A stretch of 64,000 nt of DNA from Reyranella sp. CPCC 100927 (GTDB lineage Bacteria > Pseudomonadota > Alphaproteobacteria > Reyranellales > Reyranellaceae): the NCBI RefSeq assembly GCF_007859315.1, contig NZ_VOHA01000001.1:930001-994000 (forward strand), in the 5' to 3' direction. Below are positions 16,706 through 38,466 of the stretch, in pieces; within the stretch, counting starts at the first letter, position 1; each line of letters opens with the position of its first letter. The position numbers and the translations under genes are program-made. The notes under the pieces are model-generated. The model did no database searches and was not told the origin of the DNA. It saw only the letters and a program-made list of their open reading frames with translations.

Positions 16706-17156
16706 GGTGTGTTCATAACTGACGGCGCGGGTGGCTACTACTGGTCGGGGAGCTCTCCAGCGCGCGGACGCCGTCGTTCCCACAAGAAACCATCACCGGT
16801 TACGAAAAGCTCACATCGCTGTAACATTGCCGGTGTTAGCTCCGCGCGCCTGCGATCTCCCCGGTATCAGGCAAACACAAACTTCAACGCTCGCACTTTC
16901 ATGCGAGGCGCAGCGGAGAGTTTCGTCGAATGGCTCCCAGTCCCATGGCGGTGGCGCACGTATCGTCAACCACCAAGGCGGCAGGCCGCACGGCTACGCG
17001 ATCCAGATCGATAGCGCCCGCAACGAAGACGCCTTCGCCGCAACGATTGCCAGCACAGGCGCCATCACGGCCGCCGGCCATCGCGATCTCTTGCCGGAAG
17101 AGGTCACGCTGATCGCGGGCGTGAACGTGGGTGACGATTTCAACAAGGAGACAATG
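16706..17156. other. Upstream region of the giant RTX gene
   Basis: About 450 bases between the divergent APH gene and the chosen RTX start. The RTX frame is open back to a GTG at 16731, and its last part (about 16970-17150) reads as plausible protein (GYAIQIDSARNEDAFAAT), so the true start may lie upstream. A hairpin CTCGCA-CTTTCA-TGCGAG lies at 16890-16907. AAGGAG at 17145-17150 best serves the ATG at 17157. No other gene is visible. Confidence 0.45.
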
Positions 17157-20100: not shown

Positions 20101-22883
20101 ATGCGGTCGGTGCCGATGCAGGTGCTGACCGGCTCGTGAGCATCGAGAAGATTGTCGGCGGTTCGGGTGACGACACATTTCGGGTATCGACGGCCGGACC
20201 GCTGCCGACCGCGATCGACGGTGGGGCGGGTGATGACACCGTTATTCTCGTCGGCAGCGGCGTGAGCACGCTGGCTGCAACCACCGGCGTCGAAAACCTC
20301 GTGGTACAAGACGGAACCTGGTCGGTGACCGACGGTGCACGGGGTTATTCGGATATCGTTATCAAGGATGGCGCGACGGTCACGTCGGATATCCGATTGG
20401 ACAACAGCGATGTCCTGACGATCGAGCACGGGGGCTCGCTGCGAGCGCGGCTGGATATCGCCAGCGATGTCAATGACGCGCACGCCACTGTCGACAATTC
20501 GGGAACGATCCTGGCAGCGGTGGGCCAGGCCATCGGCGTGACGTTGACGGCGTCTTCCTCGGTTACGCTGCGCAACCACGAGGGTGGCATCATCCAGTCG
20601 CTGGCGCCGGCCTTCCAAGAGACTGTCATCAACGTTGATACCCATGCCGCGTTGGAAGCGAATGTCGTGCTCGAGAATGCGGGAACGATCGAGGCAGCCG
20701 CGGGCTCGGCAATGCGGATACGGACGGGGTCATCACACACGGTCACGCTATGGAATCACGAGGGTGGTGTCATCCGGTCACTGGCACCTATGGCCGGAAA
20801 GGGCGCTGTCATTGAGGTCTTCGACGATGCAGGAGCGATCATCGAGATCAACAACGCCGGCTTGATCCAGGGCGACAGTCGTGTGTTGGGTGGGGGCAGC
20901 TACGGCTCCTTCGTTTTGAACAATCTCACGACCGGCGTTATCAGCGGCAGCCGCGTCGGCCCGGCGCTGGATTTCCAAGAGATCGACGTGGTGAACAATG
21001 CCGGCCGTATTGTCGGCGGGTCGGACGGGTTCAACTACAACCGCAGTTCCGACGCGACCTTTAACAACCTCGAGGGCGGCTATATCGAAGGGGTTCGGCA
21101 TGCCATCACCGGCAAGGTCGGCGCAACGATCAACAACGCCGTTGGCGCCACCATGGTCGGCCTCAACGGTTCGGCGGTGAACATCGACAACAAAGGCACC
21201 GTCGAGAACACGGTATACATCACCAATCGGGGCACGATGGAAGGCCGTGCGGCCGACGGGGTCCCCTCGGATGGCGACGCCATCGACGTCGACGGGTTGG
21301 TGCAGGTACTGAACTACGGTCGCATCGCCGGCCTGGGTGCCGATGGCTATCACAATGGCGAGCCGAACGTCTCGGAGGGCATGGCCATCGGCGGTGGTAG
21401 CATCGTCAACAACGCCACTGGCGAGATCTATGGCTACGGTCGTGCCATTCAGGTCGACAATTCCAGCAATGGCAATGCGTTGGGCGTCACCACGATCGTC
21501 AACGACGGCTTGATCCGCGGTGACGGCCACGGCCCGGAGGGTGTCGCTCCGGCGGACGCGGCCCGGTTCGACCTGCGCGGCAACGAAGCGATCAATCTGA
21601 TCGGAGATCACGAGGACTTCGTCGGCAACAACAGCACCGGCCGGATCGTCGGCGGCATCTCGATGGGCGGTGGCCGTGATACGCTGAACAACTCCGGATC
21701 GATCGTCGCGACGGGTGGCTCGGCGATCGATATGGGCGCCGGCAACGACCAGGTGAACCTCTATGTCGGCTCGACGGTGAGCGGGACCATCCTGCTCGGC
21801 GCTGGCGACGACGTACTGAACTCGACCTCGGCGGCCGCCTATGTTGTCGATGGCGGCGACGGCAACGACTCGATCGCCATGTACTATACGATCTTTGGCG
21901 GCGATGACGTCCTCTCCGGCGGCGCTGGCAACGACCACATCTCCGGCGGACTGGGCGAGGATCGCATCGACGGCGGCCTCGACAACGATACCCTGTACGG
22001 CGAGGACGGCGACGATCTGATCCAGGGTGGTGCCGGCGACGACCGCATCGACGGCGGCGCCGACGATGACGTGATCTTCGGCGATGCCGGCAATGACACC
22101 ATCATCGGCGGCCTTGGCAGCGACACCATCAAGGGCAATGCTGGCGACGACATTTTCGTCGTCACCAGCACGGCCGATGGCCGCGACAGCTACGACGGCG
22201 GAGCCGGCATCGACACGATCGATTACAGCGCCCTCGGCTCGGCCGTGACGCTGACGCTGAGAGACGGCACCACGTCGACCTTCGCCACCGACACGATCGA
22301 GAACGTCGAGAACGTCATCGGCGGCTCGGTGAACGACAGGCTCACCGGCAACAGCCTTGCGAACACGCTCACGGGCAATGCCGGCGACGATGTCCTCAAG
22401 GGTGCGGCGGGCAACGACATCCTCGATGGCGGCACGGGCAACGACGACCTCGACGGCGGCGCCGACAACGACCGGCTGTCGGGCGGCGCCGGCAACGACG
22501 TGCTGAAGGGTGGCGCTGGCGACGACGTGCTCAAGGGCGGTGCGGGTACCGACACCCTGACAGGTGGTGCCGGCTTCGACCGGTTCTGGTTCGACAGCCT
22601 GAGTGACGGCATCGACACCATCACCGACTTCAAGCTGTCGGGTGCGTCGGAGGACCGGATCGTCCTGTCGGCGTCGATGTTCCAGAACTTCACCGGCGAC
22701 GATGCCTTCGACCTGATCGGCAGCGGCTACCTCAGGGCCAGCGCGGCCGGCGGCCAGACTCAGATTCAGGTCGATCTCGACGGCGGCGGCAATTCCTTCC
22801 AGACGCTGGCCATCGTCAACGGCACCTTTACCAACGGCGTGCTGGCCGATCACCTGATCGTCCACCAGGACCAGCTGGTCTAG
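17157..22883 (+). CDS. Giant modular RTX calcium-binding protein with beta-helix modules
   Basis: About 1,908 residues, acidic and very rich in Gly, Asp, Asn, Ala, with almost no cysteine. Three modules repeat in order: a tag of the type DGGAGNDTI...VVQDGTWSV, a stretch of short NNAGLI/NNSGSI strands as in right-handed beta-helix adhesins, the motif VGGIS.GGG (near residues 205, 824 and 1498), then RTX nonapeptides GGxGxDxUx (about 270-360, 887-968, 1563-1807). RTX repeats fold on calcium outside the cell. The C-terminal 100 residues (ITDFKLSGASEDRIVLSASM onward) resemble RTX C-caps carrying a type I secretion signal. There is no N-terminal signal peptide from 17157 and no type I exporter gene in the window. 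It could be an adhesin, matrix or surface-layer protein; no enzyme domain is visible. Confidence 0.9.
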   Translation: MSTDGSALDLGDGDDTFEVHAGAPVATPIDGGEGNDTLKLMGPGAGTLGTNTNFETLDVQSGVWTLQSDAYDTVTIATGAIVTSQVRLADQGDMKVAVGGSILVTNGSNAVVAEGAAAIENAGLIQALGLNGAAAAGAISLSGGSVYNKAGGIILAQGVAVASDAAPAPGVELVNEGMIQSLSGQAIAFAGDAGDLLVNTRSGVIVGGISTGGGNDLVTNQGSVVASGGTAFDLGDGNDTLNLHGGSAVTGKIVLGAGNDVLSSNAAGALDIDAGDGQDSIATGDGNDRIIGGAGIDLVHAGGGDDVVDGGADDDRLQGGAGNDQLLAGAGNDVLIGGTGNDLLSGGDGVDTADYSEDRAGITVDLAAGTAVGADAGNDQLADIEKLIGGSGNDTFLVSTAGPLPSAIGGGAGNDTIRLLGNGTGALAATSGVEGLVVQEGTWSVVASDYAAITIEDGATVTSTITLNNDDRLTIEAGGKLAAGTAIVWAGGGNAVVDNAGLIEAASRVLNTTAGATGSFTFNNEADGVVRGSLNPQQRAHADATVTINNSGLMEASGRVIDFQTLASGGADVTINNLAGGTIRQTGSDTDVIRPGQNTTVNNWGMITTAPGFAGGGDLIDFQSGTGGKVNNHAGGWMEASRHAVTGDNSVTVLNEGTMIGRNGSAVNIDNGGSEAEKVFITNRGTMEGRSAELVDSDGDAIDVDGLAQVLNYGRIAGLGAEGYHDGEPNVSEGIAIGGGSIVNNATGEIYGYGRAIQVDNSSNANALGVTTIVNDGLIRGDGHGPEGVAPADAARFDLRGNEAINLVGDYEDFVGNNSTGRIVGGISMGGGRDTLNNSGSIVATGGSAINMGAGNDQVNLYVGATVAGTILLGAGDDVALSTSAGGFEIDGGDGNDTMAMDYSYGGDDILRGGAGADHIYAGAGKDRIDGGLDDDMLHGNDGDDWIDGGAGDDTIDGGAGEDTADYAKDRAGITVDFVAGNAVGADAGADRLVSIEKIVGGSGDDTFRVSTAGPLPTAIDGGAGDDTVILVGSGVSTLAATTGVENLVVQDGTWSVTDGARGYSDIVIKDGATVTSDIRLDNSDVLTIEHGGSLRARLDIASDVNDAHATVDNSGTILAAVGQAIGVTLTASSSVTLRNHEGGIIQSLAPAFQETVINVDTHAALEANVVLENAGTIEAAAGSAMRIRTGSSHTVTLWNHEGGVIRSLAPMAGKGAVIEVFDDAGAIIEINNAGLIQGDSRVLGGGSYGSFVLNNLTTGVISGSRVGPALDFQEIDVVNNAGRIVGGSDGFNYNRSSDATFNNLEGGYIEGVRHAITGKVGATINNAVGATMVGLNGSAVNIDNKGTVENTVYITNRGTMEGRAADGVPSDGDAIDVDGLVQVLNYGRIAGLGADGYHNGEPNVSEGMAIGGGSIVNNATGEIYGYGRAIQVDNSSNGNALGVTTIVNDGLIRGDGHGPEGVAPADAARFDLRGNEAINLIGDHEDFVGNNSTGRIVGGISMGGGRDTLNNSGSIVATGGSAIDMGAGNDQVNLYVGSTVSGTILLGAGDDVLNSTSAAAYVVDGGDGNDSIAMYYTIFGGDDVLSGGAGNDHISGGLGEDRIDGGLDNDTLYGEDGDDLIQGGAGDDRIDGGADDDVIFGDAGNDTIIGGLGSDTIKGNAGDDIFVVTSTADGRDSYDGGAGIDTIDYSALGSAVTLTLRDGTTSTFATDTIENVENVIGGSVNDRLTGNSLANTLTGNAGDDVLKGAAGNDILDGGTGNDDLDGGADNDRLSGGAGNDVLKGGAGDDVLKGGAGTDTLTGGAGFDRFWFDSLSDGIDTITDFKLSGASEDRIVLSASMFQNFTGDDAFDLIGSGYLRASAAGGQTQIQVDLDGGGNSFQTLAIVNGTFTNGVLADHLIVHQDQLV
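19149..19866 (+). repeat. Internal duplicated block of the RTX gene, copy 1
   Basis: About 718 bases matching 21171-21888 at a constant offset of 2022 bases (674 codons). The block covers the end of the beta-helix, the VGGISMGGG motif and the first RTX repeat. Positions 19455-19573 are identical to 21477-21595 (119 bases by eye), including third codon positions. Confidence 0.88.
21171..21888 (+). repeat. Internal duplicated block of the RTX gene, copy 2
   Basis: Partner of 19149-19866. The register is kept until about 21885, where copy 2 has one extra codon (YTIFGGDD against YSYGGDD). Outside the 119-base identical run, differences are mostly synonymous. Confidence 0.88.
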
Positions 22884-22938: not shown

Positions 22939-23721
22939 TCACGGATCCAGGTATGCCCACCACACCACCAGCGTGTTGTTGATGACGTGCGCCAGCACGC
23001 AGGGCCACAGCGAGCCGCTGCGCAGGCGCACCCAGCCCAGCAGGATCCCGATCGGCAGCACCAGGGCGATATGCGCCGGCTCGGCATGGGCGGCAGCGAA
23101 CAGGATCGAGCTCGTGGCCCAGGCGGCACGGGCGCCGAAGCGGCCATCGACGTAGCCGTAGATCAGGCCGCGAAACAGCAGTTCCTCAGCGAACGGACCC
23201 AGCAGTCCGATGGTGAGCGTCGCCGCCAGCGCCAGCGGCAAGGTCGTCGCCAGGGCCGCGATCACGTGCGATGTCTGCGGCGTCAGATCCGTGTTGAACA
23301 GCACCCGCACCAGCCGCAGCAGGACTTCATCCATCGCCACCGACAACAGCAAGGTGCAGAGCGGCGCCAGCCACCACCATCGCACGGCGAAGCGACGCAA
23401 TCCCAGCAGGCCGGATGCCGTCCGGCCGTGGCGCACGACGCCAACCCAGACCGCCACCGCAACGGCTGCAAAGAAGACCGAGAAGAGCAGGATCATGGCG
23501 GGCGGATCCTGCCCCTTCGCCACCAGTGCCAGTCGCTGAGCACCCAGCACCATCTTGACGGTGTAAAGCGCCGCGATCAGGCACAGGCCACCGGCGACCA
23601 CGGTCAGCACCACGTCGAGGCCGTGCAGTCGTGGCGGTGCCGGTGGTGCCGGTGGTGCGGGCGCCGCCACGGATGTCGCGTCGCCGGCGGATGGCGTCAG
23701 TTCAGGGGTGGTCGAACTCAT
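22939..23721 (-). CDS. CPBP family intramembrane glutamic protease
   Basis: 260 residues, with a proline-rich cytoplasmic N terminus (APAPPAPPAPP) then about seven or eight hydrophobic segments. The CPBP (Rce1/Abi) motifs are present: EELLFRG, FAAAHAEPAH, and HVINN near the C terminus, supplying the Glu, His and Asn/His active-site residues. Members cleave membrane substrates or maturate peptides; bacterial roles are mostly unknown. I chose the start at 23721 because one at 23778 would overlap the upstream regulator gene. With 22 bases between them, the regulator and protease genes may be co-transcribed. Confidence 0.87.
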   Translation of the reverse strand: MSSTTPELTPSAGDATSVAAPAPPAPPAPPRLHGLDVVLTVVAGGLCLIAALYTVKMVLGAQRLALVAKGQDPPAMILLFSVFFAAVAVAVWVGVVRHGRTASGLLGLRRFAVRWWWLAPLCTLLLSVAMDEVLLRLVRVLFNTDLTPQTSHVIAALATTLPLALAATLTIGLLGPFAEELLFRGLIYGYVDGRFGARAAWATSSILFAAAHAEPAHIALVLPIGILLGWVRLRSGSLWPCVLAHVINNTLVVWWAYLDP

Positions 23722-23743
23722 GGCGCCTTTCGCTTCTGCTCGT

Positions 23744-24553
23744 TCATCCTGTCGCGGTCGGCCCATCGGTTGGGCCATCCACCAACACTGTCAGCTTCAG
23801 ATCGGGCTGCGTGGCGAGATCGAAGGTCACCTGCTCATAGCGCAGGAAACCGTCGATAGGGTGGCTGAAAGTCCGCGCGCCGCCCTCGCGGCCGACGACG
23901 CCGTGTTGGTCCCACAGGCCGGCGAACGCTGGGCTCTGCAGCCGCAAGCCATCGATCACCGCACGCAGGGCCGGGTCGTTCAGGTGCGCGCTGCAGGCGG
24001 CTCGGAACTCGGCGACCACGCGGCGTGCCCGCTCCGGCCAATCGCAGATCAAGGCGCGCGCGGCCGGGGCGAGGAAGATGTAGCGCAGCAGGTTGCGATC
24101 TTGCGTCGCGTCAAGCCAGCCCACGAACAGCCGTTGGGCCGGTGCGTTCCAGCCGCGCGCCGTCCACGTACGGTCCAGGATGTAGGCCGGGGTAGCGATC
24201 GCGCTGACGCAGGCCAACAGGGACGCCGGCACATCACCGGCATCGCTGTCGTGCTGATCCGGGTCGCGCTTGCCGGCCAGCCCGAAGAGATAGGCGCGTT
24301 CGGCCCGCGCCAGCCGCAAGGTGGTGGCCAGCCGGGCGAGTGCCGTCGGCGATACCGAGACGTCGCGGCCCTGCTCGATCCAGGTGTACCAGGTGACGCT
24401 CAACCCGCAGAGCTGCGCCACCTCCTCCCGTCGCAGGCCGGGCGTCCGTCGCCGGGTGCCGACCGTCAGGCCGGCCACCGCCGGCGTGAGCTTCTCCCGC
24501 TGTGCGCGCACGAAGTCGCCCAGTTCGCGCCGGGAGTCGCTTTCCGTCAGCAT
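23744..24553 (-). CDS. MmyB-like helix-turn-helix regulator (MLTR family)
   Basis: 269 residues. N-terminal XRE-type helix-turn-helix with the family signature RRTPGLRREEVAQLCGLS and TWYTWIEQGR (about residues 35-65), then the PAS-like MLTR ligand-binding domain (LDRTWTARGWNAPAQRLF). Family members are linked to fatty-acid-like ligands and to divergently encoded dehydrogenases or methyltransferases, which fits the methyltransferase at 24652. The start at 24553 is preferred; the frame upstream to 24637 covers the promoter. It probably represses the divergent gene and itself through the repeats at 24562-24593. Confidence 0.9.
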   Translation of the reverse strand: MLTESDSRRELGDFVRAQREKLTPAVAGLTVGTRRRTPGLRREEVAQLCGLSVTWYTWIEQGRDVSVSPTALARLATTLRLARAERAYLFGLAGKRDPDQHDSDAGDVPASLLACVSAIATPAYILDRTWTARGWNAPAQRLFVGWLDATQDRNLLRYIFLAPAARALICDWPERARRVVAEFRAACSAHLNDPALRAVIDGLRLQSPAFAGLWDQHGVVGREGGARTFSHPIDGFLRYEQVTFDLATQPDLKLTVLVDGPTDGPTATG

Positions 24554-28093: not shown

Positions 28094-28840
28094 GTGTGGC
28101 GGGCGACGGCGTTGACCATCTTCCCCGAGATGTTCCCGGGACCGCTGGGGCTGAGCCTCGCCGGTCGGGCGCTTGAGAAAGGTGTGTGGTCGCTGGAGGC
28201 GGTGGACATTCGCCGCTTTGCCAGGGACCGCCACGGTACGGTCGACGATACGCCCTTCGGCGGCGGCGCCGGCATGGTGATGCGACCCGACGTGCTGTCG
28301 GACGCCATCGCCGCGGTGACGACGTCGGATCGGCCGACGATCTACTTCAGCCCGCGCGGCCGGCCGTTCGATCAGGCCCGGGCGCGGGCGCTGGCGGCGG
28401 GGCCCGGCGTGACCGTGGTCTGCGGCCGGTTCGAAGGGATCGACGAGCGTGTGATCGAGGCCCACGGGCTTGAGGAAGTGAGCGTCGGCGATGTGGTTCT
28501 CTCCGGCGGCGAGATCGCGGCACTGGTCGCACTCGACGCCTGTGTCCGGCTTCTGCCGGGCGTGGTGGGAGCGGCACAGTCGCTGACCGAGGAGAGTTTC
28601 GAGGAGGGTTTGCTGGAGTACCCGCACTATACGCGGCCGGCGGCATGGACCGGACCGGACGGTATCGAGCGGGCAGTGCCGGAGATCCTGCAGACGGGCC
28701 ATCACGCGAAGATCGCGGCCTGGCGCAGGACGAAGGCGGAAGAGATCACGCGGCAGCGGCGGCCCGACCTGTGGTCACGGTACGTCGCCGAGCGTCGAGA
28801 GGATGAGTCGAAAGACAGGGGTTCCGAGAGGAAAGGATAA
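28094..28840 (+). CDS. trmD: tRNA (guanine-N1)-methyltransferase TrmD
   Basis: 248 residues, starting with GTG ([19 protein letters not shown]). The SPOUT knot is marked by [17 protein letters not shown], the SAM loop [14 protein letters not shown], and [17 protein letters not shown] with LLPGVVG. TrmD makes m1G37 in tRNAs to prevent frameshifting. It is located between rimM and rplS, with only five bases before rplS, as in most bacteria. Confidence 0.97.
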
Positions 28841-28845
28841 GCATC

Positions 28846-29331
28846 ATGAACCTGATCAAACAGCTTGAGGACGAACAGGTCGCCAGGCTCGTGGCCGAGC
28901 GCGCGGTGCCGCGGTTCGAGCCCGGCGATACGCTGAAGGTCCACGTCAAGGTGCAGGAAGGCAGCCGCGAGCGCATTCAGGTCTTCGAGGGCCTGTGCAT
29001 CGCGCGCCGCAATGCCGGCCTGAACTCGTCGTTCACCGTGCGCAAGATTTCGTACGGCGAGGGCGTCGAGCGCATCTTCCCGCTGCACAGCCCGGCAATC
29101 TGGGAGATCGAGGTGGCGCGCAAGGGCATGGTCCGCCGGGCCAAGCTCTATTACCTGCGCGCGCTGCGCGGCAAGGCTTCGCGCATCGCCGAGGACGTCG
29201 ATGCCCAGCGCGAGCTGGTCGCCGAGCAGGCGGCGGCAGCGGCCAATCGGCCCAAGCGCGAGAAGGTCAAGAAAGAGCGGCCGAAGGACGAGCGCAGCGT
29301 CCGCGCCGCCAAGGGCGGCGGCAAGAAGTAG
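28846..29331 (+). CDS. rplS: 50S ribosomal protein L19
   Basis: 161 residues. The L19 core runs from [11 protein letters not shown] through [40 protein letters not shown], and [20 protein letters not shown]. About 45 extra residues, rich in Lys, Arg and Ala, follow the core, an extension found in several Alphaproteobacteria. L19 lies at the 30S-50S interface. It is the last gene of the ribosomal block; the palindromic element at 29343 comes 11 bases after its stop. Confidence 0.97.
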
Positions 29332-29342
29332 TCATTCTTCTT

Positions 29343-29469
29343 CCTCCCCAGCTTTGCTGGGGAGGTGCCCCGGAGGGGCGGAGGGGAGCCCAGGTGGTCG
29401 TGGTAACATAGACCACGTCGTCTCCCCCTCCGGCCTTCGGCCACCTCCCCCAACTGCGTCGGGGGAGGG
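29343..29469. repeat. Large GC-rich palindromic element between rplS and leuC
   Basis: A hairpin CCTCCCCAGC-TTT-GCTGGGGAGG at 29343-29365 and a second one at about 29443-29468 flank a centre. The outer halves of the whole element are complementary to each other with mismatches. It fills the gap between the ribosomal operon and leuC and may stop or reduce readthrough. It belongs to a different repeat family from those at 9423, 11300 and 50138. Confidence 0.7.
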
Positions 29470-29520
29470 TATTGACGGCCGCGGCGGACACCGGGCCTGC
29501 GTACGGGAGGGAGTGAGATC

Positions 29521-30975
29521 ATGGCCAGGAAGCCAGCATCGGCGCCGGTCGAGCCGGCGAAGCCGCGCACGCTGTTCGACAAGATCTGGGACGCCCACGT
29601 GGTGGAGCGCCGCGACGACGGCTCGTGCCTGATCTACATCGATCGCCACCTCGTGCATGAGGTGACCAGCCCGCAGGCGTTCGAAGGCCTGCGCGCCAGC
29701 GGCCGACGCGTGCGCCGTCCCGACCTGACGGTCGCGGTCGCCGACCACAACGTGCCCACCACCAACCGGGCCGCCGGCATCGATGACGAAGAGTCGCGCA
29801 TCCAGATCGAAACCCTGGAAGCCAACGTGCGCGAGTTCGGCGTGCCGTACTTCGCCATGGACGATATCCGCCAGGGCATCGTGCACATCATCGGGCCGGA
29901 ACAGGGCCTGACCCTGCCGGGCACCACCATCGTGTGCGGCGACAGCCACACCTCCACGCATGGTGCCTTCGGCGCACTGGCCTTCGGTATCGGCACGTCC
30001 GAGGTCGAGCATGTGCTGGCGACGCAGACCCTGATCCAGCAGCCGGCCAAGAACATGCGGGTCACGGTCGATGGCGACCTGCCGGCAGGCGTCACCGCCA
30101 AGGACCTGATCCTCGCCATCATCGGCACCATCGGCACCGCCGGCGGCACCGGCCACGTCATCGAGTACGCCGGCCGCGCCATCCGCAATCTGTCGATGGA
30201 AGGCCGCATGACGGTCTGCAACATGTCGATCGAAGGTGGCGCACGGGCCGGGCTGATCGCGCCGGATGAGACGACGTTCCGCTATCTCGAGGGTCTGCCC
30301 TATGCGCCCAAGGGCGGCGCCTGGCAGGTCGCACAGGGCCTGTGGCGCCGGCTGCCGTCGGACAAGGACGCCGTCTACGACCGCGAGATCACCCTGCCGG
30401 TCGCCGACATCACGCCGCAGATGACCTGGGGTACCAGCCCGCAGGACGTCGTGGCCATCACCGGCGTCGTGCCCAACCCCGACGATGCGCCCGACGATGA
30501 CCGCCGCAGCGCCTGGAAACGGTCATTGGATTACATGGGCCTGCAGCCCGGCACGCGCATGACGGACATCCGTATCGACAAGGCCTTTATCGGCTCGTGC
30601 ACCAATGGCCGCATCGAGGACCTGCGCGAGGTTGCCGCCATCGCACGCGCCGCGCTGGCCCAGGGCCGCAAGGTGGCCGGTCATGTGCACGCGCTCATCG
30701 TGCCGGGCTCCGGCCTGGTGAAGGAACAGGCCGAACGGGAGGGTCTCGACAAGGTCTTCGCCGAGGCCGGCTTCGACTGGCGCGAGCCGGGATGTTCGAT
30801 GTGCCTGGCGATGAACGCCGACAAGCTGAAGCCTGGTGAGCGTTGCGCCTCGACGTCGAACCGCAACTTCGAGGGCCGTCAGGGCCGTGGCGGGCGCACG
30901 CACCTGGTCAGCCCCGGCATGGCGGCGGCCGCGGCGATCGCCGGTACTTTCACGGACGTGCGTGAGTTTCACTGA
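29521..30975 (+). CDS. leuC: 3-isopropylmalate dehydratase large subunit
   Basis: 484 residues, aconitase family. The three [4Fe-4S] cysteines are in place: C360 in GSCTNGR, and C425 and C428 in GCSMCLAMN. Substrate-binding [10 protein letters not shown] follows near residue 447, and the N-terminal half shows [14 protein letters not shown] (as VCGDSHT). With LeuD it isomerises 2- to 3-isopropylmalate in leucine synthesis. leuD is 2.9 kb downstream, separated by four RDD/AIM24 genes. A GGGAGG-type ribosome site precedes the start. Confidence 0.98.
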
Positions 30976-31064
30976 CGCCGGCGGCACTTTGGTGCCGTCC
31001 GCGCGGGGGATGTGGTACGCTCCGGTCGTTGTCTGGTGATCGAGACGATGCGTCAGGAGCGTCC

Positions 31065-31559
31065 ATGTCCAGCCAGTATCCACCGCCACCCCCGCCACCA
31101 CCCGGCTATGGCCAGTACGGCCAGATGCAGGGGCCGACGTATGGCGGGTTCTGGATACGCTTCGTGGCCTACGTCATCGACGCCGTCATCCTGAGCATCG
31201 TCGGCTGGATCGTCCGTCTCCTGCTGCGGCTGATCATGGGAGTCCAGGCGGCCGTCGGCACGCCACAGTTCGATACGGTCATGATCACCAGCGGCCTGGT
31301 CGGGTTGATCGTGTCGTGGCTGTATTTCGCCCTTCAGGAGAGTTCCGAATCAGGCGCCACGGTGGGCAAGCGCGTCCTCGGGCTGCGCGTCCTGCGTGGT
31401 GATGGCACGCAGCTGACCTTTGCCCGCGCCACCGGTCGGTTCCTCGGCAAGTTCGTGTCGTCCTTTATCCTGATGATCGGCTATATCATGGCCGGCTTCA
31501 CCGAGCGTAAACGGGCGCTGCACGACATGATCGCCGACACGGTGGTGATCAAGACCTGA
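31065..31559 (+). CDS. RDD family membrane protein 1
   Basis: 164 residues. A Pro/Gly/Tyr-rich N-terminal tail of about 25 residues (SQYPPPPPPPPGYGQYG) leads into an RDD domain: YGGFWIRFVAYVIDAVIL, two or three membrane segments, then GATVGKRVLGLRV and FTERKRALHDMIADTVVIK. RDD proteins are small inner-membrane proteins, possibly ion or solute related, mostly of unknown function. The start at 31065 has AGGAGCG upstream. Its last 22 residues are almost identical to those of the next gene, so the pair arose by tandem duplication. Confidence 0.88.
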   Translation: MSSQYPPPPPPPPGYGQYGQMQGPTYGGFWIRFVAYVIDAVILSIVGWIVRLLLRLIMGVQAAVGTPQFDTVMITSGLVGLIVSWLYFALQESSESGATVGKRVLGLRVLRGDGTQLTFARATGRFLGKFVSSFILMIGYIMAGFTERKRALHDMIADTVVIKT

Positions 31560-31599
31560 TGCCGGTCATTTTCTGCCGGCCAAAAAGGGGAGATTGTTG

Positions 31600-32280
31600 A
31601 TGAGTAACCAGGGACAACAGCCGCCGTCGTGGCAGCAGCAGGGACAGCAGCCTGGCTACCCGCCGGCGCCGCCCCACCCGGGCTACGGTCAGCCGCAACA
31701 ACCCGGCTACGGCCAGCCGCAGCAGGGCTATCCGGCGGCACCGCCGCATCCGGGCTATGCCCCGCAGGGATATGCGCCGCCGGGCTACGCCCCGCCCGGC
31801 TATGCCGCGGCGCCTCCCGGCGTCGTGTTCGGCGGGTTCTGGATCCGGGTCGTGTCCTACATCATCGATGGACTGGTCATCGGCATTCCGATCTGGATCA
31901 TCTTCGGTATCGTGTTCGCCTCGATGTCCGGCGCGCTGTCGTCGGGTGACGAGCAGGCGGTGGCCAACGCCTTCGCCGACAACATCGGCATCTTCATTGT
32001 CGTCTACCTGTTGGCGTTCGTGGGTGCCTGGCTCTACGAAGCGATGATGAACAGCTCGGCTGCCGGCGGCACCCTGGGCAAGCGCGCGCTGGGCCTGCGG
32101 GTCGTGCGCGGCACCGACGGGTCGCGGATCTCGTTCGGCCGCGCCACGGGCCGGTTCTTCGCCAAGCTCTTCATCACCGGCCTCATTCCGTTCGGTATCG
32201 GCTTCATGATGGCCGGCTTCACCGAGCGCAAACGGGCGCTGCACGACATGATCGCCGACACCGTCGTGATCAAGAAATAG
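31600..32280 (+). CDS. RDD family membrane protein 2
   Basis: 226 residues. The first 65 or so residues are a low-complexity tail with repeats of PGYGQPQQ and YAPPGYAPPG type, followed by an RDD domain (FGGFWIRVVSYIIDGLVI, GGTLGKRALGLRVVRG, GFTERKRALHDMIADTVVI). It is a longer paralogue of the gene just upstream, which lies 40 bases away. The tail suggests a disordered cytoplasmic region able to interact with similar tails in the neighbouring proteins. The start at 31600 is chosen over 31594 by ribosome-site spacing. A terminator follows at 32311. Confidence 0.88.
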   Translation: MSNQGQQPPSWQQQGQQPGYPPAPPHPGYGQPQQPGYGQPQQGYPAAPPHPGYAPQGYAPPGYAPPGYAAAPPGVVFGGFWIRVVSYIIDGLVIGIPIWIIFGIVFASMSGALSSGDEQAVANAFADNIGIFIVVYLLAFVGAWLYEAMMNSSAAGGTLGKRALGLRVVRGTDGSRISFGRATGRFFAKLFITGLIPFGIGFMMAGFTERKRALHDMIADTVVIKK

Positions 32281-32310
32281 AGCCGATGCGCAACGTTGCC
32301 TGAACCACGG

Positions 32311-32337
32311 AAAGGCCGGCCTCGTGTCGGCCTTTTT
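32311..32337 (+). terminator. Rho-independent terminator after RDD 2
   Basis: AAAGGCCG (32311-32318) pairs with CGGCCTTT (32328-32335), followed by more T. It lies 30 bases after the RDD 2 stop and 34 before the AIM24-family start, so it separates or attenuates the two halves of the cluster. Confidence 0.8.
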
Positions 32338-32370
32338 GTGATCCGGTTGTCGCCAACAGGAGCCGAGCTT

Positions 32371-33273
32371 ATGCCGTCGTGGATCCCGCCATCGGGCGGT
32401 CAGCCGCCCGCACCGCCGCCACCGGGGGCGCCCGGGCCGCAGTGGGGTGCGCCCGGCGCGGCGCCGGGCGCCGCCGGCATGGACGTGATCGACTACCGCA
32501 TCCACGGCGAGGAGATGCAGTACGTCGAGATCGAACTCGATCCCGGCGAAGCGGCCGTCGGCGAGGCCGGCAGCATGATGTACATGGATGCCGGGGTCGG
32601 CATGGAGGCGGTGTTCGGCGATGGTCGCAAGACGGCCTCCGGCGGCTTCTTCGACAAGCTGGTGGGGGCCGGCAAGCGCCTGCTGACCGGCGAGTCGCTG
32701 TTCACCACGGTCTACACCAACCAGTCGCCCTACAAGCGCACCGTCGCGTTCTCGGCGCCGTATCCGGGCACCATCATCCCGATGAACCTGCGTGAGCTGG
32801 GCGGCATGCTGATCTGCCAGAAGGACGCCTTCCTGTGCGCCGCCCGCGGCGTGCAGCTGGGCATCTTCTTCCAGCAGAAGCTGGGCGTCGGCTTCTTCGG
32901 CGGCGAAGGCTTCATCATGCAGAAGCTGGAGGGCGACGGCATGGCCTTCGTCCACAGCAGCGGCGCCATCATGCGCCGCGAGCTGGCGGCGGGCGAGATG
33001 CTGTTCGTCGACACCGGCTGCCTGGTGGCCCTCATGCCCAGCGTCCAGTTCGACATCCAGTATGTCGGTAACATCAAGACCGCCCTGTTCGGCGGTGAAG
33101 GTATTTTCTTTGCCCGTGTCATGGGACCGGGCACTATCTGGCTGCAGAGCCTGCCGTTCTCGCGCCTGGCCTCGCGGATCTTCGCGGCGGCGCCGCAGCG
33201 CGGTGGTGGCGGCCGCGAGGAGGGCAGTGTGCTGGGTGGCATCGGCAATCTGTTCGACGGCGACAATCGCTGA
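32371..33273 (+). CDS. AIM24 / TIGR00266 family protein
   Basis: 300 residues. A Pro/Gly-rich tail ([17 protein letters not shown]) of about 35 residues precedes the AIM24 double beta-barrel, marked by [36 protein letters not shown] and a late [18 protein letters not shown]. Family members are soluble, tubby-fold-like proteins of unknown function; the mitochondrial homologue supports inner-membrane organisation. The ATG at 32371 follows CAGGAG. The gene sits between RDD 2 and RDD 3, suggesting it works with these membrane proteins. Confidence 0.87.
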
Positions 33274-33278
33274 AGACC

Positions 33279-33800
33279 GTGGCGGACAAGCAGCGCCTTA
33301 CGATCCCCGATACCGTCTGGCGGCGGCTGGCCGCCGGCGTGATCGACGCGCTGCTGCTGATCCCGCCGACACTGCTGATCATCGCGGTGACCGGCGATCA
33401 GTGGAGCCTGACCCCGATCGCGGCCCTGCTGGTGGCCCTGCTCGACCTCGTCTATCGCGCCGGCCTCGAATCGTCGTCCTGGCGCGCCACCCTGGGCAAA
33501 CGCTGGATGGGGCTTGCCGTCACCACGTTGGAGGGCAAGCGGCTGTCGGTCGAGCGGGCCGTCGTGCGCACCCTGCCGTTCTGGGCCGGCACCCTGGTGG
33601 CCATCCTGACGCCGGTCCTGGGCACCGCGATCTTCAGCCTGATCGCCTGGCTGGTGGCGCCGGCCTGCCTGCTGTGGCTGCCGCGCACCGGTTGGCGCCA
33701 GGCGCTGCACGACCAGTGGGCCAATGCCCTGGTCGGGCCGGCAAAAGCGGCCGCGGTGCCTGCAGAATCGGCATCGGAGACACCCGCCGCCGCGCCTTGA
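33279..33800 (+). CDS. RDD family membrane protein 3
   Basis: 173 residues, GTG start at 33279, five bases after the AIM24-family stop, so co-translated. The RDD core is [21 protein letters not shown], then [20 protein letters not shown] and a terminal [15 protein letters not shown]. Unlike RDD 1 and 2 it has no Pro/Tyr-rich tail and is clearly diverged. Function unknown; the context suggests one membrane complex with the AIM24-family protein. leuD begins 53 bases later. Confidence 0.87.
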
Positions 33801-33853
33801 CCTTGTATGCAATCCCCGTTAATTCGCCGCCATTCCTGGACCGGAGGACGATC

Positions 33854-34468
33854 ATGGACAAGTTCACGACACTGACGGGTGTGGCAGCACCACTGCCGAT
33901 CGTCAACGTCGACACCGACATGATCATTCCCAAGCAGTTCCTGAAGACGATCAAGCGCACCGGCCTGAAGGATGGCCTGTTCTACGAGATGCGCTACGCC
34001 GCCGACGGCAAAAAGGTCGATTTCGTGCTCGACCGCCCGGCCTACCAGAATGCCAAGATCCTCGTTGCCGGCCCCAATTTCGGCTGCGGCTCCAGCCGCG
34101 AGCACGCGCCCTGGGCGCTGCTCGATTTCGGCATCCGCTGCGTGATCGCCGAGAGCTTCGCCGACATCTTCTACAACAACTGCTTCAAGAACGGCATCCT
34201 GCCGATCAAGCTGCCCAAGGAAGACATCGCCAAGCTGATGGACGATGCCGAGCGCGGCGCCAACGCTGTCGTCACGGTCGACCTGGTGAACCAGGAGATC
34301 AAGGGCCCCGACGGCGGCACCGTGAAGTTCGACATCGATCCGTTCCGCAAGCAGTGCCTGCTGGAGGGACTCGATGACATCGGCCAGACCCTGCAGGCCT
34401 CTTCGGCGATCGACTCCTTCGAGGGCGCGCAGAAGTCGGCGCAGCCCTGGTTGTCGATGACGCGCTGA
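33854..34468 (+). CDS. leuD: 3-isopropylmalate dehydratase small subunit
   Basis: 204 residues. The swivelling aconitase domain has [19 protein letters not shown] at the start and [20 protein letters not shown] in the middle, with [15 protein letters not shown] after it. It forms the isopropylmalate isomerase with LeuC. GGAGG is just upstream of 33854; the open frame before this start is a shadow of the RDD gene. A terminator-like hairpin follows 20 bases after the stop. Confidence 0.98.
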
Positions 34469-34487
34469 GCGCCGTCACGCATCTGCG

Positions 34488-34522
34488 GCGAAGCGCCCGG
34501 CGTCGGGCGCTTTCGCGTTTTT
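34488..34522 (+). terminator. Hairpin with T-run between leuD and leuB
   Basis: AAGCGCCCG (34491-34499) pairs perfectly with CGGGCGCTT (34504-34512) around loop GCGT, and the stem can extend by three more pairs with a bulge. TTTTT follows within ten bases. It lies 32 bases before the leuB start and may end or attenuate the leuD transcript. Confidence 0.65.
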
Positions 34523-34553
34523 CGGAAACTGGTTTGTTTTGGAGGATATCGCG

Positions 34554-35696
34554 ATGGCCGGCTCCAACCGCACGCTCCTGGTACTGCCGGGCGACGGCAT
34601 CGGACCCGAGGTGATGAACGAGGTGCGCAAGGTCATTGCCTGGATGGGCAAGAAGCGCGCCGTCGGTTTCGACATCACCGAGGACCTCGTGGGCGGTGCG
34701 GCGCTCGACAAGCACGGCCTGCCGGTGACCGACGACGCGGTGAAGACGGCGATGGAAGCCGATGCGGTGCTGTTCGGCTCGGTCGGCGGTCCGAAGTGGG
34801 ACACCCTGCCGTTCGACAAGAAGCCCGAGCGTGGCCTCTTGCGCCTGCGCAAGGAGATGGACCTGTTCGCCAACCTGCGCCCGGCCAAGGTGTTCGACGC
34901 GCTGGTCGATGCCTCGACGCTCAAGCCCGAGATCGTCAAGGGCCTGGATATCATGATCATCCGCGAGCTGACGTCGGGGGTGTATTTCGGCGAGCCGCGC
35001 GGCGTGAAGACCCTGGCCAACGGCGAGCGCGAGGGCATCGACACGCAGCGCTACACATCGGGCGAGATCCGCCGCGTCTGCGCCGTGGCCTTCGAGCTGG
35101 CGCGCAAGCGCCAGAACAAGGTGTGCTCGGCCGAGAAGGCCAACGTCATGCACACCGGCGTGCTGTGGCGCGAGGAAGCGACCAAGCTGCACAAGGAGAG
35201 CTACAGCGACGTTCAGCTCAGCCACATGTATGCCGATGCGCTCGCCATGCAGCTGCTGCGCTGGCCGCAGCAGTTCGACGTCATCGTCACCGACAACCTG
35301 TTCGGCGACATCCTGTCGGACGAGGCCTCGATGCTGACCGGATCGCTCGGCATGCTGCCGTCGGCCTCGCTGGGCGCGCCCGACGCCACCGGCCGGCGCA
35401 AGGCGCTCTACGAGCCGATCCACGGCAGCGCGCCCGACATTGCCGGCAAGGGCCTGGCCAATCCGCTGGCCGAGACGCTGAGCTACGCCATGATGCTGCG
35501 CTATTCGTTCGACCTGCCGGGCGAGGCTGACTTGGTCGAGCGCGCCGTCGAGAACGTGCTGGCGGCGGGCTACCGCACGGCCGACCTGCTGACCGGCGGC
35601 ATCGACGACAAGGCTGCCGCCGCCAAGGGCCTGAAGAAGGTCGGCACCCAGGAGATGGGTGACGCCATCGTCAAGGAACTCGACCGCCTGGTGTGA
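34554..35696 (+). CDS. leuB: 3-isopropylmalate dehydrogenase
   Basis: 380 residues. The start [14 protein letters not shown], catalytic Lys/Tyr segments and the C-terminal [19 protein letters not shown] are diagnostic of the isocitrate/isopropylmalate dehydrogenase family, and [20 protein letters not shown] is the metal-binding region. It oxidises and decarboxylates 3-isopropylmalate with NAD. I chose the ATG at 34554 because GGAGG at 34541-34545 is correctly spaced. An upstream TTG at 34539 would include the ribosome site. Confidence 0.98.
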
Positions 35697-35711
35697 CGTC
35701 GGGAGGAACGC

Positions 35712-36227
35712 ATGGAGTCGTTCGGGTCCATCGTCACTCTCGCCGTCATCGTTATCGTGGCGGTCCTGTTGCTGCGGGCCAGTTTCACGGTCGTGCCACG
35801 CGATATGAACTGGACGGTCGAACGTTTCGGCCGGTTCAGTCGTCTGCTGAAGCCGGGCATCAATTTCGTCGCGCCGTTCATCGACCGGATCGGCGCCCGG
35901 CATGACATGCGCCAGGCGACGCTGGATGTGCCGCCCCAGCGCGCGACGACCAAGGACAACGCCACGGTCGAGGCGGGTGCTGTTCTGGGCTACCAGATCG
36001 CTGATGCCGTCAAGGCCACTTACGAGGTCGCCGACCTGAAGGTCGCGCTGGCTCAGCTGGCCGGCACGGTGATGAAGAGTGTCATCGGCACGCATCCGAT
36101 CGCAGCGCTGTCGACCGATCGGGCCACGATCAATACCACCCTGCAACAGCAGGTCGCGCCGGCCGCCGAAGCGTGGGGCGTCACCGTTTCCAGTCTCGAG
36201 CTCCGAGGCATCGCCTTGCCGGACTGA
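35712..36227 (+). CDS. Short band-7/SPFH (stomatin/prohibitin-like) protein
   Basis: 171 residues against 250-320 for usual stomatins. One N-terminal membrane segment (IVTLAVIVIVAVLLLRASF) is followed by the SPFH domain, with VVPRDMNWTVERFGRFSRLL, LKPGINFVAPFIDRI and DNATVEAGAVLGYQI. It stops right after the domain (SLELRGIALPD), where relatives continue into a coiled coil for oligomerisation. The stop is clean with no frameshift visible, so it is either a genuine short form or a truncated one. It lies 15 bases after leuB. Confidence 0.82.
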   Translation: MESFGSIVTLAVIVIVAVLLLRASFTVVPRDMNWTVERFGRFSRLLKPGINFVAPFIDRIGARHDMRQATLDVPPQRATTKDNATVEAGAVLGYQIADAVKATYEVADLKVALAQLAGTVMKSVIGTHPIAALSTDRATINTTLQQQVAPAAEAWGVTVSSLELRGIALPD

Positions 36228-36252
36228 CCGGCAGGGCGATGCCCCCCGGCCG

Positions 36253-38466
36253 CTACTTCCAGGTCAACCCCAGTTCGCCGAAGCGGTTGATCACGTTGAA
36301 CAGGATGCGCGAGACGTTGTTGTCGTAGCCGTTGTGCGGCAGGCTGCCGCAAAACGTGATCGAGCCCGTGGCGAAGACGGCACCGCCGTGCGGTGCATCG
36401 AAGTACGTCATGTCGGCCCGGATCAGCTTGTCGATCGGCAGTCCCGACACGGTCGCGTAGATGCCCAGCACTTCCTCGGGCACGGCGACGAAGTGATCCT
36501 GGTGCTTCTCCGAGGAGGCAATCACGACAGCGTTGTGCGGCGTGCCCAGCGTATGGTCGGCGCGATCGAGTTCGAAGCCGGCCGCACCGCCGCCACTGAA
36601 GCCGAAGTCGCCGAGGACCTCGTCGCTGACGCCATTCATGATCCAGGCGACGCGCGGGTCGTCTGCCGCCGGCAGACGCCGGTAGTACGAGCCTTCGTAT
36701 TGTCCCTGGGACGAGAAGCCGACGCCGCCCAGCATCTGCGGCGGCCGCCCGTTGTGCCGCCACAGGCCGCCATAGGCGCCGTCGAGCGCGTGGTAGTACT
36801 CGCCGGGCTCGGCGGCCCAGGTGCGGATGGCGGCACCGGCGCGGCGGATCTCCAGCACACCCGGCACCTTGGGCGAGCGCGCGACGCGCCAGTAGAAGCC
36901 GTTACCGCCGAGATAGGCCAGCCGGCCGCCGCCATCGACGTAGGCCTGCAGCGCATCGAGCGTGCCCAGCGTGTGGTACTCGGGATGCGAGCCTGTGACG
37001 ACGACCTTGTAGTCCTTGATCAGGTCGAGGCCGTAGTCGTCGAGGTCTTCGTCGGTGATGACGTCGAAGTCGATGCCCTTGGCTTCGAACCAGCTCAGCA
37101 GGTGGGTGTCGGCCGAGAAGTGCCGCAGGCCCGAGCCGCGCGCGTCGTTGAAGCTCGGGAAGCCCGGCCGCAGGGTCAGTGCCGGCCGCAGGCGCGATGA
37201 GTAGCAGATGCCGCTCATGTCGCTGTGCCGGTTGTAGGTCGACAGGCCGAACTCGGGGAAGTCCTGCGGGTTGTTCGGCGCGGCGCCCCATTCCTTGACG
37301 CGCTGGCGGAACGCATCGTCGTAGTTGCCGCGAATGAAGTTGAAGTAGACCTGGTAGGTGAAGGTGGCGGCGAGATAGGCGACTTTCGCCTTGGGTTGGC
37401 CGGCCGACGGACGCACGAAGAACGGGATCGTGTCCTGGTGCGAGCCGCATGTGATCTGCATGCCGTAGACGCCGCTCTTCAGGTCGGCGGGCACCATGAA
37501 GCTGAAATCCGTCTCCCAGCCGCAGTCGTGCAGATCGTCGTCGTGGAAGTGGATGGCCGCGTACTGGCGTGGCGCCTCGCGCCAGCGCATCTCCCGGCCG
37601 GTCCAGGTCGAGCCTTTCATGGCCCGCGCCGGCAGGTTCACCAGCACGCCATGCAGGCGATGGGGACCGATATCCTCGATGTCGATGCCGTCGAAACCGC
37701 GCGAGAAATCCCACGCCGCCACCGCCTGCAACGGCAGCTTGGCGGGATCAAAGGCGAGCGCGGTCGGATCCGAAACGGCGGCGCCGAGGATCATCGGATC
37801 CTCGATCTTGCCGTTGAAATAGCGCCGCGCCGGCTGTGCCTGTTGGGCTGCGATGAAAACCGGCCGTCGTGCATCGGGTGCCGCGTTGGCGTCGAGCGGT
37901 CCTTGCGCTTCGCCGGCATCGTCGCTCAGCGCCTCGGGGCGCAGCGGCTTCTGGCCGACGCGCACCGACCGCGAGGCCGGGTCGACCACCGCCCAGATGC
38001 GGTACCATGCCCGTGGACGAAAGGCCTTGCCGGTCTCGATGCGCAGCGGCGTGCCTGTGGTGCGGCCGATCTCCAGCGCCAGGCCGCGCGGCGTTGCCAG
38101 CAGCGCGAACCCGACGCCCGCGTCACTATCCCAGCGTGACAGCACGCATTGATCGCCGCTGCCGGGCAGGGTCGGCCAGATCGTGGCGACGATGGTGATC
38201 GCCTGCAGCGGCGACAGCGTCGTGGCGCGCTCCACGACCGCGTACGAGCCGGGATAGGACCGCTGGACGCGCGAGGGGAACGTGTGCGTGAAGCGGGACG
38301 ACAGGTCCTCGAACTTCATGCCGGGTCCCTTCGGATTGGGATCGCCGCTGCGGATGCGCACCAGCCGTGCGTGCGCGGGCTCGCTGCCGCTGCTCGATAT
38401 CTTGAACGCGATGTGCTCACCGGCCGCAGCCGACAGTCGATCCGTATATCCGGTCAAAGCAATCAT
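36253..38466 (-). CDS. N,N-dimethylformamidase large-subunit-like protein
   Basis: 737 residues. It matches the large (beta) subunit of N,N-dimethylformamidase in length and layout: an N-terminal beta-rich part, a LamG-like sandwich (about residues 80-240, IVATIWPTLPGSGDQCVLSR), and a C-terminal amidotransferase-like part with GLSTYNRHSDMSG, VTGSHPEYHTLGTLDALQAY, and GGRLAYLGGNGFYWRV. The known enzyme binds one iron with two Tyr and one Glu; candidate Tyr and Glu residues occur in these motifs but I cannot assign them. No small subunit gene is adjacent. It may cleave another amide. A LysR gene lies directly upstream on the same strand. Confidence 0.85.
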   Translation of the reverse strand: MIALTGYTDRLSAAAGEHIAFKISSSGSEPAHARLVRIRSGDPNPKGPGMKFEDLSSRFTHTFPSRVQRSYPGSYAVVERATTLSPLQAITIVATIWPTLPGSGDQCVLSRWDSDAGVGFALLATPRGLALEIGRTTGTPLRIETGKAFRPRAWYRIWAVVDPASRSVRVGQKPLRPEALSDDAGEAQGPLDANAAPDARRPVFIAAQQAQPARRYFNGKIEDPMILGAAVSDPTALAFDPAKLPLQAVAAWDFSRGFDGIDIEDIGPHRLHGVLVNLPARAMKGSTWTGREMRWREAPRQYAAIHFHDDDLHDCGWETDFSFMVPADLKSGVYGMQITCGSHQDTIPFFVRPSAGQPKAKVAYLAATFTYQVYFNFIRGNYDDAFRQRVKEWGAAPNNPQDFPEFGLSTYNRHSDMSGICYSSRLRPALTLRPGFPSFNDARGSGLRHFSADTHLLSWFEAKGIDFDVITDEDLDDYGLDLIKDYKVVVTGSHPEYHTLGTLDALQAYVDGGGRLAYLGGNGFYWRVARSPKVPGVLEIRRAGAAIRTWAAEPGEYYHALDGAYGGLWRHNGRPPQMLGGVGFSSQGQYEGSYYRRLPAADDPRVAWIMNGVSDEVLGDFGFSGGGAAGFELDRADHTLGTPHNAVVIASSEKHQDHFVAVPEEVLGIYATVSGLPIDKLIRADMTYFDAPHGGAVFATGSITFCGSLPHNGYDNNVSRILFNVINRFGELGLTWK

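What the first reader, a model, noticed from the sequence alone, without database searches (positions are those of the whole stretch)
31065..33800. Embedded RDD-RDD-AIM24-RDD cluster between leuC and leuD
leuC and leuD encode two subunits of one enzyme and are normally close. Here four genes for membrane and AIM24-family proteins are placed between them. Three carry Pro/Gly/Tyr-rich tails, and RDD 1 and 2 share nearly identical ends. The matching low-complexity tails suggest that the proteins assemble together, possibly as an uncharacterised inner-membrane complex.
Basis: partly seen in the sequence, partly recalled or inferred. Interest (0 to 1): 0.55.

Follow-up and report, generated by a model that had tools for sequence, protein, structure and literature searches.

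The report
Tailed RDD and AIM24 genes inside leuCD
Between two leucine-synthesis genes of this alphaproteobacterium lie membrane-protein (RDD) genes that this bacterial family has long kept there, plus an AIM24 gene apparently acquired from other bacteria, whose protein now carries a proline-rich front end of the same general kind as its neighbours', hinting at a shared partner, though no complex has been shown.

Summary
In detail: leuC–RDD1–RDD2–AIM24–RDD3–leuD. The "tails" are N-terminal, on RDD1, RDD2 and AIM24; RDD3 has none. The near-identical RDD1/RDD2 ends are mostly the conserved RDD C-terminal motif.

Interruption of leuC–leuD is common in Alphaproteobacteria: 36 of 113 linked co-directional pairs have a gap over 100 bp, and 10 of 113, in six families, hold an RDD gene. 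In the window's own family an RDD sits there in 15 of 15 other loci examined that hold both genes, usually with a proline-rich N-terminal tail.

AIM24 is the new part. It is at this locus in 4 of 4 genomes of the genus and absent from 33 of 33 other family genomes. It branches inside a Burkholderiales clade, so horizontal acquisition is the best reading. Its 27 nearest relatives appear to start at the domain; the four genus proteins carry a Pro/Gly-rich tail.

No AIM24–RDD adjacency was found outside the genus (79 loci), and a terminator-like hairpin separates RDD2 from AIM24 in 3 of 4 species. A general RDD–AIM24 complex is not supported. A genus-level association through cytoplasmic tails is plausible but untested, and the tail likeness to its own RDD neighbours is weak.

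The parts
29521..30975 (+). leuC, 3-isopropylmalate dehydratase large subunit
   Evidence: PF00330 6.5e-184; TIGR00170
31065..31559 (+). RDD1: membrane protein, N-terminal P/G/Y-rich tail (about residues 1-25), RDD domain 26-157
   Evidence: PF06271 7.9e-27; AlphaFold2 pLDDT 88.6, two long helices 29-59 and 69-93
31600..32280 (+). RDD2: membrane protein, 77-residue P/G/Y/Q-rich tail, then RDD domain
   Evidence: PF06271 2.8e-25; tail
32306..32340 (+). terminator-like hairpin with U tract between RDD2 and AIM24
   Evidence: fold of 32300-32350: -25 kcal/mol, z -4.65; hairpins with changed stem sequences in G001 and G002, none in the few bases of G003. Not in the list of the consensus scan
32371..33273 (+). 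AIM24-family protein; about 36-residue Pro/Gly-rich N-terminal tail, then AIM24 domain 42-261
   Evidence: PF01987 3.3e-70; model (mean pLDDT 69.2, tail under 50) matches 1yox, Z 25.6, 192 aligned
33279..33800 (+). RDD3: tail-less RDD of a separate lineage; 5 bp behind AIM24
   Evidence: PF06271 4.3e-20; clade with G001 and G004
33854..34468 (+). leuD, 3-isopropylmalate dehydratase small subunit
   Evidence: PF00694 5.3e-41; TIGR00171
34490..34513 (+). terminator-like hairpin between leuD and leuB
   Evidence: 5 such sites found in 28800-36300, 3.3 expected from shuffles
34554..35696 (+). leuB, 3-isopropylmalate dehydrogenase
   Evidence: PF00180 1.6e-133; TIGR00169

Best explanation
The leuC–leuD gap is a site where Alphaproteobacteria often hold extra genes. 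In this family it has held one or more RDD genes, probably since the family's ancestor, most of them with a proline-rich N-terminal tail. In the ancestor of this genus an AIM24 gene, acquired from a Burkholderiales-like donor, was inserted between RDD2 and leuD, and its product gained a proline-rich tail of the same general kind. Working model (inferred, not shown): the RDDs are two- to three-pass inner-membrane proteins with their tails in the cytoplasm; AIM24 has no membrane helix and sits at the inner face of the membrane; the tails are disordered recruiting peptides that bring RDD1, RDD2 and AIM24 to one partner or patch of membrane. The RDD core then does the membrane work, perhaps cation/proton exchange or control of a partner. 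Shown here: gene order, conservation, the AIM24 tree position, presence of the tail in the genus and not in near relatives, purifying selection. Inferred: time and direction of transfer, topology, shared partner, function. Nothing here links the genes to leucine synthesis beyond their position.
For: RDD between leuC and leuD in 15 of 15 non-genus family loci holding both genes (15 of 33 such genomes examined) and in 10 of 113 linked class pairs. AIM24 in 4 of 4 genus genomes and 0 of 33 other family genomes. AIM24 tree: the four genus proteins lie in an 18-row clade (99/95) whose other 14 rows are Burkholderiales or titled betaproteobacteria; the other alphaproteobacterial AIM24s branch elsewhere. 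All 27 other rows of the wider 31-row clade have a Met two residues before the domain, with at most 6 Pro in the 40 open-frame residues upstream (L020 has PPPP there but no Met before it), while the four genus proteins have a Pro-rich tail behind an ATG. The DNA pattern for PPPPVWDA gives 10 hits in 37 genomes, all within 2.6 kb upstream of leuD, reversed control 0 in the rows listed. AIM24 tails against g3/g4 RDD tails: single p 0.0005-0.45, pooled 0.001 by composition-matched shuffles. dN/dS 0.08-0.24 for AIM24, 0.12-0.36 for RDD1, 0.19-0.27 for RDD2, against 0.06-0.18 for leuC and leuD. Elsewhere some members of both families carry an N-terminal GYF_2 domain (4 AIM24 and 5 RDD proteins confirmed).
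Against: No RDD–AIM24 adjacency outside the genus. The hairpin splits RDD2 from AIM24 in 3 of 4 species. The tail likeness is modest: against the genus's own RDD1 and RDD2 tails p is 0.03-0.65, against g5 tails 0.015-0.35; the sequences are related, so the pooled p is not independent; in a GC-rich genome Pro/Gly runs arise easily. The AIM24 tail changes faster than the domain (pN 0.04-0.13 against 0.03-0.06, higher in 6 of 6 pairs). No GYF_2 protein was found in the four genus genomes, so no reader of the tails is known; the GYF_2 proteins confirmed were chosen for it, and the 7 other RDD-bearing proteins in the same two calls have none; GYF_2 also occurs on a pilin. RDD1 of this genus lacks the P-x-W motif.
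Confidence: 0.45

Rival explanations
1. Chance insertion only. The gap is a permissive site; AIM24 landed there, survives for its own cell-wide role, and has no physical link with the RDD proteins. The Pro/Gly tail arose by low-complexity expansion in a GC-rich genome.
For: The gap holds unrelated genes elsewhere: exonuclease-III-like and host-attachment-like ORFs (G007, G011; named by eye), a nitroreductase-like ORF (G031; by eye), TM2 and GYD genes (G020; Pfam), an SDR-like ORF (by eye) and a DUF4282 gene (Pfam) in G169. No AIM24–RDD linkage elsewhere. Hairpin between RDD2 and AIM24. The AIM24 tail is not clearly closer to its own RDD neighbours' tails than composition gives and is less constrained than the domain.
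Against: The tail is kept in 4 of 4 species and seems absent from the 27 nearest relatives, and the only three P/G/Y-rich N-termini among 55 window CDS are these neighbours.
Confidence: 0.38
2. One reading: RDD1, RDD2, RDD3 and AIM24 form one uncharacterised inner-membrane complex.
For: Colinear genes in 4 of 4 genus genomes for RDD1–RDD2–AIM24; AIM24 and RDD3 5 bp apart in the window; B. subtilis SppI, an RDD protein, does form a membrane complex with SppA (PMC7568657: start of abstract and one passage read).
Against: RDD3 is in 2 of 4 genus genomes, has no tail and is the least constrained (dN/dS 0.42, one pair). No adjacency outside the genus. The hairpin separates the RDD and AIM24 halves.
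Confidence: 0.13
3. The inserted genes serve leucine synthesis, for instance by balancing LeuC and LeuD or moving an intermediate.
For: Position only; RDDs recur in this gap in six families.
Against: 103 of 113 linked pairs have no RDD found in the gap; in G074 an RDD sits before leuD although leuC lies elsewhere; most RDD and AIM24 matches of the class survey lie away from the leu genes.
Confidence: 0.02

Closest known systems
RDD family (PF06271); characterised member: H. andaensis RDD, Na+(Li+,K+)/H+ antiporter (PMC5996927; abstract and part 1 of the discussion read)
   Same: Conserved R, D and D positions (R32, D39, D154 of RDD1); RDD1 and RDD2 also have an Asp four residues after D154, which by motif spacing (my inference, no alignment with that protein) may match the essential D158.
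   Different: P/G/Y-rich N-terminal tail; two or three copies inside the leu cluster; RDD3 has Asn at the D158-like place. Transport not tested.
B. subtilis SppI, RDD protein that binds and inhibits SppA (PMC7568657; start of abstract and one passage read)
   Same: RDD membrane protein that works by binding another protein.
   Different: Acts through a C-terminal domain on a protease; the authors report no salt or alkali phenotype on deletion or overexpression.
AIM24 family (PF01987 / TIGR00266); structure 1yox (P. aeruginosa PA3696)
   Same: Same fold: Z 25.6, rmsd 2.1, 192 residues aligned, 54% identity; sequence E 1.5e-82.
   Different: Pro/Gly-rich N-terminal tail; position between RDD and leu genes.
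Yeast mitochondrial Aim24 (PMC3975624; part of the abstract and passages read)
   Same: Pfam names the family after it.
   Different: Yeast Aim24 is an inner-membrane protein that interacts with MICOS; nothing comparable was shown here. The words 'bacteria' and 'prokaryot' do not begin any word of that paper's main text.
GYF_2-bearing RDD and AIM24 proteins (Lysobacteraceae and other lineages)
   Same: The same two families carry an N-terminal module that may bind peptides.
   Different: Folded GYF_2 domain instead of a Pro-rich tail; no RDD next to AIM24 in the loci fetched.

Membership tests
RDD family (PF06271) | Profile match over the curated cut-off | tested here: met
   94.7, 89.6 and 72.8 bits against 24.1
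RDD family (PF06271) | Conserved Arg, Asp and Asp | tested here: met
   R32, D39 and D154 of RDD1 are invariant in the 49 rows, RDD2 and RDD3 included; in the wider 52 rows the last Asp is at 90% or more (three rows, L144, L145 and L150, were dropped between the two)
RDD family (PF06271) | Three transmembrane segments in the inner membrane | tested here: inconclusive
   Model has two long helices and a helical C-terminal part that may re-enter the membrane; no topology experiment
RDD Na+/H+ antiporter (as H. andaensis RDD) | Cation/proton antiport; essential R124, R129, D154, D158 | not testable with these tools
   Transport needs an assay; only the two Asp positions were compared, by motif spacing
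AIM24 family (PF01987) | Profile match over the curated cut-off | tested here: met
   236.4 bits against 25.7
AIM24 family (PF01987) | AIM24 fold | tested here: met
   1yox_C Z 25.6, rmsd 2.1, 192 aligned; 1pg6 Z 21.7, rmsd 3.8, 215 aligned
TIGR00266 protein family | Score over NCBI's cut-off | tested here: met
   97.6 against 96.6 bits, barely
Dedicated RDD–AIM24 membrane complex | Recurrent gene neighbourhood across lineages | tested here: not met
   79 AIM24 loci outside the genus, flanks up to 8 kb: none with an adjacent RDD, one 7 kb away
Dedicated RDD–AIM24 membrane complex | Physical interaction | not testable with these tools
   Only single chains can be modelled here

The most novel reading that the evidence does not exclude
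A horizontally acquired AIM24 protein was recruited to an older RDD membrane system by taking on the tail type of that locus: a short proline-rich peptide with a P-P-x-W core acts as an address tag that gathers unrelated proteins at the inner face of the membrane. The leuC–leuD site would then be a natural experiment in which a newcomer joins a membrane assembly by gaining a tag.
Probability: 0.15. Interest if true: 0.65.

Novelty: new variant of a known kind. Interest (0 to 1): 0.4.

Why it matters
RDD and AIM24 are widespread bacterial families with little known function. A locus where an incoming AIM24 gained a tail of the kind its RDD neighbours carry gives a small, testable system: delete one short tail and ask whether localisation, partners or membrane phenotype change. 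It also shows that the leuC–leuD gap in Alphaproteobacteria is a site with recurrent RDD genes, so the four extra genes need no link with leucine synthesis.

Tried and rejected
GYF_2 partner: I asked whether a GYF_2 protein of the same genome could read the tails; none in the four genus genomes. Rejected as a named partner.

Recent duplication as the source of the alike RDD1/RDD2 ends: rejected; the RDD1 and RDD2 lineages are older than the genus. The interleaved RDDs of the class do not form one clade, deep branches are unresolved and the tree warns of long branches, so one old insertion and several are both open.

Pattern for PGYxPGY: wrongly spaced, no hits, uninformative. First RDD profile: too narrow and drawn to the tails; replaced. 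The RDD2–AIM24 hairpin is not in the consensus scan's list; I found it by reading the sequence. The scan found no sigma-70-like promoter in 28800-36300.

Papers: AIM24 with RDD family and bacteria (0); at least two of RDD, AIM24, operon (63 papers, 10 listed, none of the 10 with AIM24); leuC, leuD and RDD (3 listed, not opened); TIGR00266 (3 listed, not opened); GYF with RDD family protein (0). None of these listings shows this association; the library holds open-licence papers only.

Organism: not named by the tools. The nearest named record is a MAG titled 'Alphaproteobacteria bacterium isolate TGS_PRO8'. I guessed Reyranellaceae from memory and did not test it.

Full report
What is there. 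The window reads leuC (29521-30975), RDD1 (31065-31559), RDD2 (31600-32280), AIM24 (32371-33273), RDD3 (33279-33800), leuD (33854-34468), leuB (34554-35696), all on the + strand. The Pro/Gly/Tyr-rich stretches are N-terminal: about 25 residues in RDD1, 77 in RDD2 and 36 in AIM24; RDD3 has none. Among 55 plausible CDS of the window these three are the only ones with at least half P, G and Y in some 25-residue stretch of the first 60 residues, and they are consecutive.

Is the interruption unusual? I took 192 alphaproteobacterial genomes, asked for at 90% completeness or more, and looked for leuC, leuD and RDD. Positions of both leu genes could be read for 136; 113 have them linked within 20 kb on one strand; 77 of the 113 have a gap of at most 100 bp and 36 a longer one; 10 of 113 hold an RDD domain (E at most 1e-9) in the gap, in six families, and G113, G208 and G074 have an RDD next to only one of the two genes. 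In the window's family I fetched 16 of 33 other genomes; 15 stretches hold both leu genes and all 15 have one RDD (8) or two (7) in the gap; the sixteenth (G004) begins behind leuC and has an RDD3-like gene before leuD. So leuC–RDD–leuD is probably old in this family, and the gap elsewhere also takes other genes.

What is special. AIM24 is in the gap in all four genomes of the genus and has no match in 33 other genomes of the family; in the class survey 18 of 192 genomes have an AIM24 at all. In a tree of 96 AIM24 rows the four fall inside a clade of 18 rows (99/95) whose other 14 members are Burkholderiales or titled betaproteobacteria, while other alphaproteobacterial AIM24s branch elsewhere. 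The sample was the 80 best matches to this protein plus alphaproteobacterial rows, the bootstrap had not settled, and the root is a midpoint, so the direction of transfer is inferred. All 27 other rows of the 31-row clade have a Met two residues before the domain and at most 6 Pro in the 40 open-frame residues upstream; L020 has PPPP there but no Met before it. The four genus proteins start with M[PS]SWIPPSGG(G)QPPAPPP and more.

The tails of the family's RDDs. Sister genera carry short tails such as MATVPNSGPAAPPPPVWDARP or MSQIPPPPPPNWQQQQ. A DNA pattern for PPPPVWDA gave ten hits in 37 genomes, one each in ten genomes, all within 2.6 kb upstream of leuD, and none for the reversed control in the rows listed (positions compared): this motif belongs to this locus. 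The AIM24 tails align to the tails of genera g3 and g4 better than composition-matched shuffles in the pooled test (p 0.001), with single values from 0.0005 to 0.45; against g5 tails p is 0.015-0.35, and against the genus's own RDD1 and RDD2 tails 0.03-0.65. The sequences are related, so I take this as weakly suggestive of a common origin or use, no more.

Against one complex. With a profile from RDDs of many families, I found an RDD beside AIM24 in only one of 80 fetched AIM24 loci, the one from the same genus; one other has an RDD 7 kb away. In the 21 alphaproteobacterial genomes with AIM24 that I searched for RDD, 15 have an RDD match and only the four of the genus have it beside AIM24. A hairpin followed by U lies between RDD2 and AIM24 in the window (-25 kcal/mol, z -4.65) and, with changed stem sequences, in G001 and G002 (z -3.5 and -6.3, on stretches I trimmed around the hairpin); in G003 the two genes are only a few bases apart. 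RDD3 is in 2 of 4 genus genomes and is a separate lineage with G004.

Are the genes in use? Pairwise dN/dS among the four species is 0.08-0.24 for AIM24, 0.12-0.36 for RDD1, 0.19-0.27 for RDD2 and 0.42 for RDD3 (one pair), against 0.06-0.18 for leuC and leuD. All are under purifying selection, RDD3 least. Within AIM24 the tail changes faster than the domain (pN 0.04-0.13 against 0.03-0.06, higher in 6 of 6 pairs).

How it may work. The RDD1 model (pLDDT 88.6) has two long helices, 29-59 and 69-93, and a C-terminal part with short helices and two strands. AIM24 is a beta protein like 1yox (Z 25.6) without a membrane-length helix in its model (mean pLDDT 69.2). If the RDD N-terminus is cytoplasmic, as the Arg at the start of helix 1 suggests (inference), the three tails meet at the inner face of the membrane. 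One RDD is reported as a Na+(Li+,K+)/H+ antiporter (PMC5996927) and another, SppI, as an inhibitor of the protease SppA in a membrane complex (PMC7568657); either activity could sit behind the tails. In other lineages some members of the same two families carry a GYF_2 domain at the N-terminus: 4 of 5 AIM24 and 5 of 12 RDD-bearing proteins scanned, the nine positives having been chosen because a GYF_2 was expected. A pilin has it too. That GYF domains bind proline-rich peptides is recalled. It fits the idea that both families are placed by N-terminal interaction modules, but no GYF_2 protein was found in the genus.

Verdict. Observation confirmed; a general RDD–AIM24 complex not supported; a genus-level tail-based association possible. 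Interest 0.4.

Noticed in passing
31065-31559 (RDD1): The RDD1 model resembles the membrane part of the Pex2/Pex10/Pex12 peroxisomal retro-translocon (7t92): Foldseek E 0.024, 0.11 and 0.30 for its three chains; VIA-align Z 10.6, rmsd 3.3, 126 aligned, next entry Z 4.8. Pfam Pex2_Pex12 is a weak match for 2 of 49 RDDs, best E 0.011, but unrelated families score as well or better there (DUF6069 0.0018); it was not seen in 20 RDD-bearing proteins scanned one by one, and a profile search of PDB sequences lists no Pex chain. Helical folds can reach such Z by chance; no paper in the library holds RDD, Pex10 and Pex12 together. That chains of 7t92 are Pex2, Pex10 and Pex12 is recalled.
   Followed up: partly
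17154-22883: 1909-residue protein with RTX calcium-binding repeats (PF00353, 12 stretches).
   Followed up: no
22939-23778: CAAX-protease-like (Rce1-like) protein on the - strand with a Pro-rich stretch near its N-terminus.
   Followed up: no
35712-36227: 171-residue Band_7/SPFH protein behind leuB; found in G001, no match in the stretches fetched from G002 and G003.
   Followed up: no
29346-29362: Near-palindrome CCCCAGCTTTGCTGGGG inside a longer repeat-like stretch between rplS and leuC; no second copy in the window.
   Followed up: partly
36253-38466: DMFA2_C (N,N-dimethylformamidase beta-subunit-like) protein on the - strand.
   Followed up: no
L173:1224-2898; L171, L172, L174: Lysobacteraceae: a GYF_2 protein (Pilin domain found by Pfam in L173; the others looked at by eye) beside one or two GYF_2–RDD proteins.
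   Followed up: partly
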